Shown piece after piece: positions 30,837 through 34,851 of a stretch of DNA of 35,495 bases; within the stretch, counting starts at the first letter, position 1; the number at the start of each line of letters is the position of its first letter. The notes beneath the pieces were generated by a model. That model was not told the DNA's origin. It searched no databases and saw only the letters and a program-made list of their open reading frames with translations. This DNA comes from Asaia bogorensis. GTDB lineage: Bacteria > Pseudomonadota > Alphaproteobacteria > Acetobacterales > Acetobacteraceae. The position numbers and the translations under genes are program-made. Location of the stretch: assembly GCA_945888575.1 (NCBI GenBank), contig CAMDAM010000008.1, forward strand, positions 1 through 35,495, given 5' to 3'.

Positions 30837-31126
30837 ATGGCGCAAGTGCCGCTGGCGATCCGTAAGCGGGGCGGCGGAAGGTGGTGGTGTCGGCCGATGG
30901 GACGGTGTTGCCCAACGCACCGTGGCACGTAGCTACCACCGCCGATCCGGCGCTGCTGAGGGCGCTGGGGCGGGCGTTCCGGTGGAAGAGGCTGCTGGAC
31001 GATGGGACGTACGCCTCACTCTCCGATATCGCTCGGGCCGAAAAGTTGGAGCGGACCTACGTGGGCGTCGTGTCACGGCCTACGTTGCTGGCGCCTTGGG
31101 TGGTGGAGGCGATCCAGGAGGGTTGG
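30837..31126 (+). pseudogene. Frameshifted relic of a recombinase-associated helix-turn-helix protein
   Basis: ATG 30837 opens MAQVPLAIRKRGGR, which then needs a one-base shift near 30878-30880 to continue as KVVVSADGTVLPNAPW. A region follows with RAFRWKRLLDDGTYASLSD and ARAEKLERTYVG, then LLAPWVVEAIQEGW. From memory this is the layout of the small helix-turn-helix proteins encoded after serine recombinase/DUF2924 genes in alphaproteobacterial mobile regions, whose C-terminus normally continues past EAI-x-x-G. Resemblance stops at 31126, where base composition drops. No recombinase gene remains nearby. Confidence 0.55.
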
Positions 31127-32257
31127 TCTCGACAGACATTCGAATCTACTCTTCCAGATGCACTGAGCGCATCGAGCCGGCCCCCTTCCCAAACGGAGAC
31201 GCACCGTACATCCTTCACCATCAAGGAGATAAGTCCAGCACAGTTGAACCGTTCTAATCCGGAAAACTCGATACACAAAAACAGAGTACTCGTAATGTTA
31301 GAATTAATGTCGGGAATGTTTAGTGTGTTACGCCAACGGGGCGTCGGTCTCCTTCGCCGCTTCAGCCACCTTGCGACATTTCTCTGCATCATATTTTTTA
31401 TGAGTGGGATATATTACTTAAGTTGGATCATTCGTCCGGACTATTTTCGTATTCAACAGGACGTAAATTTCCTGCCGCTCGACCTAATGTCGCTGGCTGC
31501 AGCTGGCGCGGGCGGAGCAACGGAATCGCCACGCGACGACGAAGCGACGGGCAAGTTACGAGCATTAATGAGAGAGATACAAATTGGCTCAATGAGTCTC
31601 AATACACTTCGGAGGCGCTTGGAGGAAGCGTCGCGTGCCGACAAAAGCGGTTACGAAACCTTTTCAGATTTGATGTGGCGGCAGCATGATGCCTTTATAG
31701 CTGCTCGGACGATTGGGATAAGGGAACAAATAGCGTCTTTTGATAATAAAATGGCCAACGTTATGCAAGCGGCAGGAGCCTCGAGACCAGAAGACCTTCC
31801 GCTTGGTCTCGACCTAACATACTCTAATCTCGCTGTAAGACGGGCGGAGTTGGAGTTGCAGCGCCTCCAAGAGGAGGTTGCGGCGCGCAACTACGCGATC
31901 TCGAACCTCGTCGAGTTCCAACAACTGCCTGAACAACGCCGCTACCTTGAACAGCGTCGGGCCTTTGAAGAAATGGAGCGCGAGGTCTCGCGCGAGCAGG
32001 AAAGAATCTGGCGTCTCGGCTCGCAAATCGACCTAGCAAAAAACGATTATCGTCGAGAAGTGTTGAATAAACTGACCTACTGGGATTTTTTATATTTTAG
32101 CTTCGGCTCGTCAACGAACTCTAATTTTGGCGACATATCGCCCAATCATCGCATAGTGCGTGGTTTGGTATGCTTACAAATTCTCTCGAGCATTGTCATA
32201 CTTGCTGCTGTGGTAGACAGTCTACGCCCGCGACCGATGGATAGACGTGGGCAGTGA
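30881..32257 (+). CDS. Coiled-coil membrane protein with ion-channel-like pore loop and altered filter
   Basis: The frame is open for 458 codons from GTG 30881, but residues 1-82 are the helix-turn-helix relic. The native protein more likely begins near ATG 31295, 31307 or 31316 (about 320 residues). It has a membrane segment (about 164-184, LATFLCIIFFMSGIYYLSW), a long charged region (about 225-395) with coiled-coil heptads, and a C-terminal pore loop plus second membrane helix (400-446). DFLYFSF, then TNSNFGDISP, aligns without gaps to the two-helix K+-channel pore, with TNSNFGD in place of TTVGYGD. The gene is much AT-richer than its surroundings (35% GC in 31381-31440), suggesting transfer. 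A role in membrane depolarisation is possible but unproven. Confidence 0.65.
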   Translation: MVVSADGTVLPNAPWHVATTADPALLRALGRAFRWKRLLDDGTYASLSDIARAEKLERTYVGVVSRPTLLAPWVVEAIQEGWSRQTFESTLPDALSASSRPPSQTETHRTSFTIKEISPAQLNRSNPENSIHKNRVLVMLELMSGMFSVLRQRGVGLLRRFSHLATFLCIIFFMSGIYYLSWIIRPDYFRIQQDVNFLPLDLMSLAAAGAGGATESPRDDEATGKLRALMREIQIGSMSLNTLRRRLEEASRADKSGYETFSDLMWRQHDAFIAARTIGIREQIASFDNKMANVMQAAGASRPEDLPLGLDLTYSNLAVRRAELELQRLQEEVAARNYAISNLVEFQQLPEQRRYLEQRRAFEEMEREVSREQERIWRLGSQIDLAKNDYRREVLNKLTYWDFLYFSFGSSTNSNFGDISPNHRIVRGLVCLQILSSIVILAAVVDSLRPRPMDRRGQ

Positions 32258-32490
32258 TGCCCCCTCCCTTACTGCTGCTTCGTGACATAGGTCTTCTCGC
32301 TCAGCCCGCTAACCGGCATGACACGCGGGTCCACCTCCTCTAGCGCCACTTCTGGGGCGAACCAACGCTACATCGATACCCGTGGCACCGAATGGGAAGC
32401 GCGCGGAACCTCTTGGCTGCTTCGATCTATGGAAGTACACTAAAACTCGTAGTCGCGGGCACCTCAGATCGAGCGGTGGAAGACGCCGAC
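32258..32490. other. Intergenic stretch in the island, possible protein-fragment relic
   Basis: There is no intact gene. On the minus strand 32269-32367 is open and ends in TAA; it reads like a protein C-terminus (RWFAPEVALEEVDPRV, then MPVSGLSEKTYVTKQQ) but has no start. Further upstream on that strand the frame is broken. It may be the remnant of a gene lost from the island. Confidence 0.35.
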
Positions 32491-32742
32491 CTATCTCGCC
32501 ACAGCAGGCGCCGTCTCTGCCACCCCAAACGCTGAGTCGCGCAACTCCCTTAGCACCCGCGCCTCGGTTTCGTGCCGCCGCACTTCATCATCCAGCTTTG
32601 CCGCATGAAGCGACGGGTCGCGACCCCAGCCAATTGCGGCAAACTCCCGCCGGAGGTGATGCTCCGTGGTCGCAGAAATGGTGCCGTCCCTGACTTCACG
32701 CTTGAGGGCTGCAATCAGGTCTCGAATTAGGTTCTCGCCCAT
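32491..32742 (-). CDS. Small hypothetical helical protein
   Basis: The 83-residue product is not recognised. It is charged and helical: MGENLIRDLIAALKREVRDG suggests an amphipathic N-terminal helix, and AKLDDEVRRHETEARVLREL a second, possibly coiled-coil, helix. It lies 75 nt downstream of the 401-residue gene on the same strand and could be the third gene of that operon. Its modest Pro/Arg content argues against a chance frame, but support is limited. Confidence 0.5.
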   Translation of the reverse strand: MGENLIRDLIAALKREVRDGTISATTEHHLRREFAAIGWGRDPSLHAAKLDDEVRRHETEARVLRELRDSAFGVAETAPAVAR

Positions 32743-32817
32743 GATGCTCTACCCTGGAAATGTCTTTGCAATGATAGCACGTCGCCGACGACCCTCGAGG
32801 ACTGTTTGGTCATCGGT

Positions 32818-34023
32818 TTAGGGAACATCAAAGTCCGCTGGGCTCGTCAGCACCCATGGACGCCCACGCTTCTCAAGAGTTCCACTGACCGATACAGGCC
32901 GCCCTGATGCATGAGCATCCAGAGCAAGCAGGTAGTCCTTTGGGACAAGCCGCACGCGAACTTGAACGTCACCAAGGTCCGCGCTGGACCATTGGATCGC
33001 AATTTCTCGCTCGCCGGTTGGGTTCAGCAAATCTGATGGATCCGCATCGCTCTCGAGGCGGACCACTCGCCCGAAGACCTTCTCGGGCCTCGGCACGAAC
33101 TCCGTCCGGAGCATTTTGGCGACGGTACGGGACACCTCTACGTGCGCCTGCCCGATGGAGAACTCCGTGGCTGTCGACAACTCGGGGGGGGCGCCCCATT
33201 CAGGACTGAACGAAAACGCGAAGTCCATGCCTCCGGGCGACGTATCTTCCAACAGGTTGGCAAGCTGCTCATAGGCATTCGCGCTGAAACCGAGCTTCGC
33301 GTCTGCAACCAAGGTAGTCGGATCGTCCTTTCGCACCGCATCGCAGAGGTTCAGCATGCCTCGGGCGAACCGCTCGATGACGAGACGCTCAAAGGGTGCC
33401 ACCTGGCCAATCTCTGGCAAGGTTGGCTCGTTGTTCGGAGCTAGTGGGCTCTCGATGGTGAACCCGAAGCTACCACGAAAGGTATGGCCAAAGCGGCACC
33501 TGTCAGCGAACTCTTTGGCTTCCTTCCGGACCCGCAGGAAGTAGGGCTGCGGGTCGATCTGTGTCGTCGCTATCGAAGACAGCAGACTCTTGATCCCAAA
33601 CGTGTAGTTCGCCGCGATTTCGAGGTGGATCGTGTCATCGAAAACAAGAGTGTCTGGAATGCGTGAACGCACCACGTCATACCCAACCGCCCGTATGTCA
33701 TTGATTACTTCCATCGTGTCTCGGTCTTCCACGACTGACAGGATGCGAATGGCATCCACCATTCTCCGGTCGTAGTCCGAGCCGACACGCTCGCGTGGCA
33801 CGATGAGCTCTACGTCATCCGCCCCATCCTCGGAGAAGACGAACAGATCAGCGGTCCGGCGCCCGGTGCTGCGGGCCTGGAAGGCGGCAAGCACCACGGG
33901 GTTCTGAACATCACCAAAGGACGAGCGACCTGCCGACCCGCGGCGCCAGCCACGAGCCGTAAGGTACCGGCGCAGCAAGCCCAACGGGACCATCACCGGC
34001 TTGATGTCGCCATCACCGGTCAT
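32818..34023 (-). CDS. Uncharacterised 401-residue protein coupled to a DUF4365 gene
   Basis: I cannot name the family. The 401-residue soluble protein starts with a small alpha/beta unit (about 1-75), VPLGLLRRYLTARGWRRG through ADLFVFSEDGADDVELIVP. A helical segment (about 80-130) with YDRRMVDAIRILSVVEDRD follows, then a larger central domain. The C-terminal about 60 residues (REIAIQWSSADLGDVQVRVR, then SVSGTLEKRGRPWVLTSPADF) look like a small beta-barrel with a GR-x-W-x-L turn, as in OB-like folds. No nuclease or ATPase motif is seen. It overlaps the DUF4365 gene by 4 nt (ATGA), so the two are translationally coupled and probably act together. Confidence 0.75.
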   Translation of the reverse strand: MTGDGDIKPVMVPLGLLRRYLTARGWRRGSAGRSSFGDVQNPVVLAAFQARSTGRRTADLFVFSEDGADDVELIVPRERVGSDYDRRMVDAIRILSVVEDRDTMEVINDIRAVGYDVVRSRIPDTLVFDDTIHLEIAANYTFGIKSLLSSIATTQIDPQPYFLRVRKEAKEFADRCRFGHTFRGSFGFTIESPLAPNNEPTLPEIGQVAPFERLVIERFARGMLNLCDAVRKDDPTTLVADAKLGFSANAYEQLANLLEDTSPGGMDFAFSFSPEWGAPPELSTATEFSIGQAHVEVSRTVAKMLRTEFVPRPEKVFGRVVRLESDADPSDLLNPTGEREIAIQWSSADLGDVQVRVRLVPKDYLLALDAHASGRPVSVSGTLEKRGRPWVLTSPADFDVP

Positions 34024-34586
34024 CCCGACTGGCTCAATCTGCGGTGCCGCTCCATAGCCAGCAGTTGGCGGAGTGTGTCGGGGGTAAGCAACTGGTTCGT
34101 CGGGATGAATATGCGCTTGGTGGAGCTATTGCCACACGGCGTGCCAGGAGGCTCAATGTGCCAATAGCAGCAGCGACGCAGTGTCGTCGCGTCCTCGGTC
34201 ATCATGTGCCACTCCGCCTGAGTCTTCGGTAGGCAAAGCAAGATAAGCATCAGAGTGGTCTCTGATGGCTCGCGCGTCACCATATCGTCGTAGGTCTTGG
34301 CCTCCAGATCATAGACGACTCGTCCGTCCTTTAGCTCCCAATCGATGCTTGCCTTGGCCTGAAAGTCGAGCGGGTAGCCGGAGTTTGTCTTGCCACCATT
34401 TGGTCGCAGCTTCACCTCGGTGAACTGGCCGTCTACGCCATAGTCATGCGCATTTGTGATGTGGTTCACCCCGGCAATGCCGCTCAGCGCATAGATGTGT
34501 GCAAAGCACAATTTTTCCTGTGCGTGCTGTATCGTGATCAACAAGCTGTCCCCGGCTCGACCTCTGTCGGAGCATCCTGATCTCAC
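34020..34586 (-). CDS. DUF4365 domain-containing protein (PD-(D/E)XK-like fold)
   Basis: The frame opens at GTG 34586 (188 residues), but homology begins near ITIQHAQEKLCFAHIYALSG, so TTG 34544 or 34541 may be the real start. The product fits DUF4365: HDYGVDGQFTEV followed by LDFQAKAS gives the D...(E/Q)xK arrangement of restriction-endonuclease-like folds. The second acidic position is Gln, as is usual in this family, so activity is uncertain. The central region has WELKDGRVVYDLEAKTYDDM and PSETTLMLILLCLPK. It is the first gene of a (-) operon with the 401-residue gene. DUF4365 genes often occur in defence-rich islands. Confidence 0.75.
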   Translation of the reverse strand: MRSGCSDRGRAGDSLLITIQHAQEKLCFAHIYALSGIAGVNHITNAHDYGVDGQFTEVKLRPNGGKTNSGYPLDFQAKASIDWELKDGRVVYDLEAKTYDDMVTREPSETTLMLILLCLPKTQAEWHMMTEDATTLRRCCYWHIEPPGTPCGNSSTKRIFIPTNQLLTPDTLRQLLAMERHRRLSQSG

Positions 34587-34851
34587 GACGAAATGTCTAG
34601 GGCTCGGGGCTAATCTTGCTATCGCTGACGGCGGGCCAACTCTCGGCCAAGTGTCCCGAAGGCCGGGAGGCGAGCTCAGAGCGCTGCGCTGACGAACGTC
34701 GACTGAGGGGGCAGCGACGCCTCACGCAGTCGTTCCGTCTCCGGGCCACAAGCGCTGATCAGGGTGGAAATTGGGGCGCTGTTCGAGGCTATACAAAGAC
34801 ATGTCCTTTTGCTTCCACGGAATCCCGAGCACAAGAGGACAAAAGTTTTTT
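34587..34851. other. Right edge of the island, no gene seen
   Basis: No convincing coding frame on either strand. It should contain the promoter of the (-) DUF4365 operon. GTCCTTTTGCTTCC at 34803-34816 resembles the outer part of a type A hairpin but lacks the stem, possibly a damaged copy beside intact B4. Confidence 0.45.

What the first reader, a model, noticed from the sequence alone, without database searches (positions are those of the whole stretch)
32491..34586. Coupled DUF4365 plus 401-residue protein (plus small helical protein) operon
DUF4365 overlaps the 401-residue gene by 4 nt and a small gene follows 75 nt later. DUF4365 has a PD-(D/E)XK-like pattern (VDG ... QAK). The partner has a possible OB-like C-terminus, which would suit nucleic-acid binding. 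A conserved two- or three-gene unit of this kind would be worth defining.
Basis: partly seen in the sequence, partly recalled or inferred. Interest (0 to 1): 0.62.

Follow-up and report, generated by a model that had tools for sequence, protein, structure and literature searches.

The report
Two-gene nuclease phage-defence candidate
Two overlapping bacterial genes make a predicted DNA-cutting enzyme and a partner that probably senses and controls it; the pair is an already listed but untested phage-defence candidate, and the partner turns out to be built from swappable parts.

Summary
DUF4365 gene A (34020-34586, minus) overlaps the 401-residue gene B (32818-34023, minus) by 4 nt; gene C follows 75 nt later. 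A and B match PADLOC's candidate defence system PDC-M02 (M02A 1.1e-61, M02B 6.7e-128), so the two-gene unit was already defined, though the name occurs in none of the papers searched. A's predicted fold is closest to the DREN nuclease of the SPARDA Argonaute system (Z 13.3), and the catalytic D...Q-x-K is invariant in 44 of 44 A proteins. B ends in a predicted OB fold. In 398 genomes 9 of 9 A loci have B and 9 of 11 B loci have A. C is not part of it. In sister species G005 the same site holds type II CRISPR-Cas; in G001 Cas genes follow the same left flank. New here: B is modular. Cyanobacterial plasmids carry a 175-181-residue B (N domain plus OB), and single loci show other C-termini or none; the N domain is the constant part. 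Most likely model: B docks A through the N domain, senses foreign nucleic acid and triggers A's nuclease. Activity is untested.

The parts
34020..34586 (-). Gene A, PDC-M02A / DUF4365 (DREN-like) nuclease. Likely start TTG 34541 (or 34544), about 173 aa; D37, Q61, K63 by the 34541 numbering
   Evidence: Pfam PF14280 1.9e-11; PADLOC PDC-M02A 1.1e-61; AF2 pLDDT 91.3; SPARDA Z 13.3; triad invariant in 44 of 44 rows
32818..34023 (-). Gene B, PDC-M02B, 401 aa: N domain (about 1-120), middle domain (about 121-308, motif R-x-G-H-T-x-x-G-S-F at 177-186), C-terminal OB fold (309-401)
   Evidence: PADLOC PDC-M02B 6.7e-128; no Pfam; AF2 pLDDT 83.4, pTM 0.75; OB matches at 309-401; domain limits
34020..34023 (-). 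4-nt ATGA overlap: stop of A, start of B
   Evidence: sequence; a -4 start is available in 30 of 43 junctions
30875..34811 (.). Lower-GC island (500-base bins 0.52-0.61 against 0.65-0.71 to its left), replaced by type II CRISPR-Cas genes in G005 (both flanks) and, from the left flank, in G001
32491..32742 (-). Gene C, 83 aa. NOT part of the system: a genus gene found elsewhere without A/B

Best explanation
A mobile two-gene anti-phage / anti-mobile-element module (PDC-M02). A is a DREN-type (DUF4365) PD-(D/E)XK nuclease effector. B is its dedicated partner: a short N-terminal domain docks A, the C-terminal OB domain (and the middle domain where present) senses nucleic acid of an invading element, and B keeps A idle until then. 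On sensing, B clusters A subunits, as the Argonaute filament does for SPARDA's DREN, and A degrades DNA, stopping the infection or killing the cell. Shown or predicted here: gene pairing, catalytic triad, predicted folds, mobile and defence context, modular B. Inferred: docking through N, repression, OB ligand, clustering, collateral cleavage, protection.
For: PADLOC match of both genes. D37/Q61/K63 invariant in 44 of 44 A proteins, the same residues as D41/Q60/K62 of NbaSPARDA DREN (passages of PMC12205087) and Q62/K64 of TmuRE (passages of PMC10810196). The best fold matches of A are six SPARDA entries, Z 10.7-13.3, ahead of Hjc 8.8 and I-Ssp6803I 7.5; Foldseek ranks 9qcc first, E 1e-4. B residues 309-401 match OB folds of SSB, PriB, RPA and RecG. 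A with B: 9 of 9 A loci in 398 genomes (with 44), 21 of 21 plasmid records found with window A, 4 of 4 viral contigs found with A (three already in the B set). Intact B with broken or lost A in six loci (L016, L035, L045, L130, L131, L132). Every intact A that I examined has the B N domain beside it although the rest of B varies. Coinheritance, Mantel r 0.767 over 31 pairs. Site shared with Cas9/Cas1/Cas2. Plasmid and prophage carriage; Cas3/CasA and DUF262/Abi/HicA neighbours.
Against: No activity was tested; PDCs are called unvalidated in PMC12988326 (passages). By sequence the A profile finds no PDB chain, SPARDA included, at E up to 1, so the DREN link rests on Pfam's DUF4365, the triad and a predicted fold. 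The asymmetry between A loss and B loss is not significant: 0 of 30 A-selected loci lack B against 6 of 57 B-selected loci with broken or absent A (Fisher two-sided p 0.089); counting L047, whose B has no OB, it is 1 of 30 (p 0.41). L007 and L047 have intact A with a B lacking the OB domain, so OB is not required for the pair to persist. Fifteen near-identical Bradyrhizobium plasmid records, of 46 found with L010's A, match A residues 3-122 only and have no B hit; not examined. No complex could be predicted. N and middle domains have no fold match and were not folded alone. OB Z values of 7-10 are partly within the range of a common arrangement.
Confidence: 0.57

Rival explanations
1. Toxin-antitoxin or plasmid-addiction module: A is a DNase toxin, B its antitoxin, and the pair mainly stabilises the element that carries it.
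For: A found with B in 21 of 21 plasmid records and 9 of 9 genomic loci; B left after A was broken or lost in six loci; plasmid and prophage carriage; ParA annotated within 4 kb upstream in 5 of 10 cyanobacterial loci with intact A.
Against: B is long, with three parts and an OB fold, more than simple neutralising needs; A's closest structural kin work only when clustered by a sensor (PMC12205087 passages); CRISPR-Cas genes share the site in sister species; the loss asymmetry is not significant.
Confidence: 0.2
2. Direct restriction-like pair: B's OB or middle domain recognises a modified or structured DNA, and A cuts at that site without collateral damage.
For: A's next structural kin are Holliday-junction resolvases and the homing enzyme I-Ssp6803I; OB folds often bind single-stranded or junction DNA (general knowledge).
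Against: The best match is the collateral DREN nuclease; A has no recognition domain of its own.
Confidence: 0.15
3. A repair or recombination function of mobile elements, such as end processing, not defence.
For: OB fold plus nuclease is typical of repair (general knowledge); carried by phage LE1.
Against: Patchy (B in 10 of 398 genomes; 4 of 100 relatives, own included); site shared with CRISPR-Cas; no recurring repair gene seen by eye in the annotated flanks.
Confidence: 0.08

Closest known systems
PDC-M02 (PADLOC-DB 2.0.0 candidate system, models PDC-M02A and PDC-M02B)
   Same: Both genes, order and lengths match; this locus is a member.
   Different: PADLOC gives no mechanism. The M02B models shown (lists capped at 25 per protein) are 270-412 positions long, and the 175-181-residue N+OB form of cyanobacterial plasmids matches the best of them in two end segments.
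SPARDA (short Argonaute plus DREN/DUF4365-APAZ)
   Same: Nuclease domain: closest predicted fold (Z up to 13.3) and same D...Q-x-K residues.
   Different: No Argonaute and no APAZ found; the nuclease is a separate small protein and its partner carries an OB fold. No detectable sequence match of the A profile to SPARDA chains.
Type II toxin-antitoxin modules
   Same: Two overlapping genes on mobile elements, effector almost always found with its partner.
   Different: Partner is large, multi-domain and variable; no toxicity data.

Membership tests
PDC-M02 (PADLOC) | Gene A matches M02A models | tested here: met
   24 models at E up to 1, best 1.1e-61
PDC-M02 (PADLOC) | Gene B matches M02B models | tested here: met
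   34 models at E up to 1, best 6.7e-128 over residues 8-400
PDC-M02 (PADLOC) | A and B adjacent on one strand | tested here: met
   4-nt overlap
PDC-M02 (PADLOC) | Anti-phage activity | not testable with these tools
   no experiment; 'PDC-M02' in 0 papers of the library; the preprint cited for PDCs, 10.1101/2024.01.29.577857, is not held
DUF4365 / DREN nuclease | Pfam PF14280 above cut-off | tested here: met
   44.6 bits against 24.3
DUF4365 / DREN nuclease | Catalytic D...Q-x-K | tested here: met
   44 of 44 rows; literature residues from passages
DUF4365 / DREN nuclease | PD-(D/E)XK fold like SPARDA DREN | tested here: met
   predicted model; Z 13.3, rmsd 3.4, 142 aligned to 9qbp_C
DUF4365 / DREN nuclease | Collateral nuclease activity on clustering | not testable with these tools
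   needs biochemistry
SPARDA | Nuclease fused to APAZ | tested here: not met
   window A is 173-188 aa and matches DUF4365 only
SPARDA | Short Argonaute in the operon | tested here: not met
   no PIWI/Ago match among A, B, C and three flanking window proteins in Pfam, nor among A, B, C and the channel gene in PADLOC
Toxin-antitoxin module | A toxic alone, B neutralises | not testable with these tools
   genomic asymmetry only, p 0.089 or 0.41 by definition of B loss
OB-fold proteins (B C-terminus) | OB fold | tested here: met
   predicted model; best 8bbz_AAA Z 9.9, rmsd 1.9, 74 aligned, then SSB, PriB, RPA, RecG; that these are OB folds is recalled
OB-fold proteins (B C-terminus) | Binds nucleic acid | not testable with these tools
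   OB folds also bind proteins, sugars and metal ions (general knowledge)

The most novel reading that the evidence does not exclude
PDC-M02 is an Argonaute-free DREN nuclease platform. A roughly 90-residue N-terminal domain of B is a universal docking piece for the nuclease, and evolution swaps what is attached to it (middle domain + OB, OB alone, helical tails, or nothing after the middle domain), so one effector is re-aimed at different triggers.
Probability: 0.33. Interest if true: 0.7.

Novelty: new member of a known kind. Interest (0 to 1): 0.5.

Why it matters
DREN nucleases are known for collateral DNA cutting in Argonaute defence. Finding the same catalytic core as a free-standing protein with an OB-fold partner gives an untested defence candidate a concrete mechanism to test, and the natural short forms of B point to which part may dock the nuclease and which parts may sense.

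Tried and rejected
Third gene as a component: rejected; its only family match is weak (phrog_30549, E 0.004). GTG 34586 as the start of A: less likely than TTG 34541/34544 by alignment. SPARDA membership: rejected, no APAZ or Argonaute. Known relatives of B's N or middle part: none found by sequence (N: best PDB E 0.047, and 8 Pfam families each matched by 1 of 23 members; middle: 0 PDB sequences at E up to 1; whole-B profile: 0). The VIA rows for whole B span 309-401, so the rest is barely tested; BFVD gives the phage LE1 homologue (1e-25), a 270-aa myovirus protein (4.1e-7), a 101-aa Nodularia phage protein (4.9e-4) and weaker rows. A against PDB sequences: only ribosomal S4 chains from E 0.062 for the single protein, taken as chance, and nothing at E up to 1 for the profile. 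Single origin of the compact and helical B forms: rejected under the quick A tree (AU p 0.0024), with the caution that the Azospirillum row is a very long branch. Compact B in viral contigs and phages: none found (with single sequences; 114). Sampling of the G130 family gave only 18 genomes. DNA-level match of the island to plasmids: none.

Full report
What was claimed and what is there. Window positions 34586 to 32491 on the minus strand hold three open frames, A (188 codons from GTG 34586), B (401) and C (83), with a 4-nt ATGA overlap between A and B and 75 nt between B and C. A is DUF4365 by Pfam. B and C have no Pfam or NCBIfam match; B has no solved-structure match by sequence (C was not searched there). 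PHROGs gives A phrog_27905 (1.3e-13) and weak rows for B (0.01) and C (0.004), all of unknown function. A probably starts at TTG 34541 or 34544. The genome holds one B.

Already named. PADLOC-DB calls A PDC-M02A (best of 24 models 1.1e-61) and B PDC-M02B (best of 34 models 6.7e-128), so the two-gene unit is a listed phage-defence candidate. The name PDC-M02 occurs in 0 papers of the library. A 2026 paper says that PDCs come from a 2024 preprint and remain unvalidated (passages of PMC12988326); the preprint is not held. Ten papers mention DUF4365 (listing); I saw passages of three, all on Argonaute systems.

Linkage. A profile of B found 11 B loci in 10 of 398 genomes of the phylum. A profile of A found 9 A loci in 8 of the same 398 genomes, all 9 next to B. 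Two B loci lack A: G195, where SRP54/Ffh coding sequence precedes B, and G255, where B itself is broken. The general DUF4365 model gives 29 hits in 28 of the 398 genomes, 9 of them next to B (with 44); the other 20 are other proteins, 18 of them in frames of 286 aa or more, and three of the 20 show a weak match to the A profile. In plasmids, window B finds 15 records and window A finds 21; all 21 have B or a short B next door, 18 fetched and 3 judged by the coordinates of two searches. Of 48 non-redundant B loci held, L006 begins at a contig edge; of the other 47, A lies directly upstream in 41 (in L043 cut by the contig end, in L037 a weak match). The six others are L003 (B fragment), L016 (an IS-transposase fragment upstream), L028 (A and B both truncated), L035 (A split by an insert of about 760 bases), L045 and L048. 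A start codon is available at the exact 4-nt overlap in 30 of 43 junctions. A and B distances correlate over 31 pairs, Mantel r 0.767, p 0.0001.

Gene A. AlphaFold2 on 17 rows gives pLDDT 91.3 and pTM 0.86. The best matches in the VIA-align second look are six SPARDA entries (Z 13.3 to 10.7), then Hjc Holliday-junction resolvases (8.8 and below) and I-Ssp6803I (7.5); Foldseek ranks SPARDA first at 1e-4. By sequence, the A profile finds no PDB chain at E up to 1. D37, Q61, K63, P105 and W111 are invariant in 44 of 44 A proteins. In NbaSPARDA the catalytic residues are D41, Q60 and K62, and the nuclease domain is idle alone and active as a tetramer on the Argonaute filament (passages of PMC12205087).

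Gene B. AlphaFold2 on 19 rows gives pLDDT 83.4 and pTM 0.75. Residues 309-401 match OB-fold proteins (SilF Z 9.9, SSB, PriB, RPA, RecG). The N part (invariant W26 in 23 rows) and the middle part (invariant T, G and S of R-x-G-H/Q-T-x-x-G-S-F in 19 rows) have no recognised relatives.

Modular B. Searching with A led to cyanobacterial plasmids in which the partner has only 175-181 residues: HMM positions of about 2-90 of B joined to about 294-374, so the middle domain is missing while the 4-nt overlap and the A triad remain. Seventeen plasmid records, all Nostocales, carry this form over at least 80% of the query. Of 13 that I fetched, 10 have intact A, one has A frameshifted (L130), one keeps only A's last 26 residues (L131) and one has no A (L132); four were not fetched. 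A further Nostoc plasmid holds an internal-deletion remnant (L129). Azospirillum lipoferum 4B has intact A with an N domain followed by an unrelated helical-looking tail, judged by sequence. G093 (L007) has N plus middle plus a non-OB tail, and in G231 (L047) B stops after the middle domain; either may be a variant or a damaged B. The N domain is the only piece beside every intact A that I examined. The quick A tree rejects one clade for the compact and Azospirillum forms (p 0.0024; long-branch caution). PADLOC's best full-length M02B models hit compact B in two end segments.

Context. The region 30875-34811 is GC-poor against its left flank. In sister species G005 the same interval between the CoA-transferase and the GMC oxidoreductase holds Cas9 (in two frames), Cas1, Cas2 and a repeat array. 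In G001 the same left flank runs into a 1047-aa frame with Cas9 domains and a Cas1 frame; its right flank is on another contig, so the swap is shown there on the left side only. In the other same-genus genomes fetched the flanks lie on different contigs or have other neighbours. Elsewhere the pair lies near Cas3/CasA (L011), DUF262, Abi and HicA genes (L017), at the first genes of a mycobacterial prophage (L018) and in Leptospira phage LE1 (L019). Among the 10 cyanobacterial loci with intact A, ParA is annotated within 4 kb upstream in 5 and an integrase or recombinase downstream in 9.

Gene C. C is found in 7 of 8 other same-genus genomes, at 78-87% identity in four, while none of those eight has B. 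In G001 and G005 it lies on other contigs than the CRISPR-Cas site. It is not a component.

Mechanism. I take A to be the effector and B its docking, holding and sensing partner (0.57 for this frame, lower for each detail). The pairing seen from A's side and the six intact B genes left after A was broken or lost hint that A without B is harmful, but the asymmetry is not significant: 0 of 30 against 6 of 57, p 0.089, or 1 of 30 if L047 counts, p 0.41. Fifteen Bradyrhizobium records with a partial A and no B hit remain unexplained.

Verdict. A regular member of a listed but untested defence candidate, now with a credible enzyme assignment and an unexpectedly modular partner.

Noticed in passing
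L119-L128, L130-L132 (cyanobacterial plasmids): Compact 175-181-residue PDC-M02B (N domain plus OB, no middle domain), 17 plasmid records; A is frameshifted, deleted or absent in three of 13 fetched; ParA within 4 kb upstream in 5 of 10 with intact A.
   Followed up: yes
L146 5490-6047: Azospirillum lipoferum 4B plasmid: A followed by a B N domain with an unrelated tail.
   Followed up: partly
L098 (G005:C55:16463-24307), L099 (G001:C10): Type II CRISPR-Cas genes at the same chromosomal site as the window island in two sister species (left flank only in G001); Cas9 lies in two frames in G005 and one 1047-aa frame in G001.
   Followed up: partly
window 30881-32257 (+): 458-aa frame in the same island: Ion_trans_2 channel part at 396-447 with an N-terminal stretch (18-83) like a phage recombinase family (phrog_14161, 8.8e-19); possibly a mobile-element remnant run into a channel gene.
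   Followed up: no
L129 2869-3192: Nostoc C057 plasmid: in-frame internal deletion joins the first half of A to the end of a compact-B OB domain; annotated as a DUF4365 protein, about 2.5 kb from dpdK.
   Followed up: partly
hits H79-H93 (Bradyrhizobium plasmids): Fifteen near-identical records match A residues 3-122 only, 5 with a transposase annotated over the match, and have no B hit.
   Followed up: no
L035 6599-7867: A interrupted by an insert of about 760 bases, B intact.
   Followed up: partly
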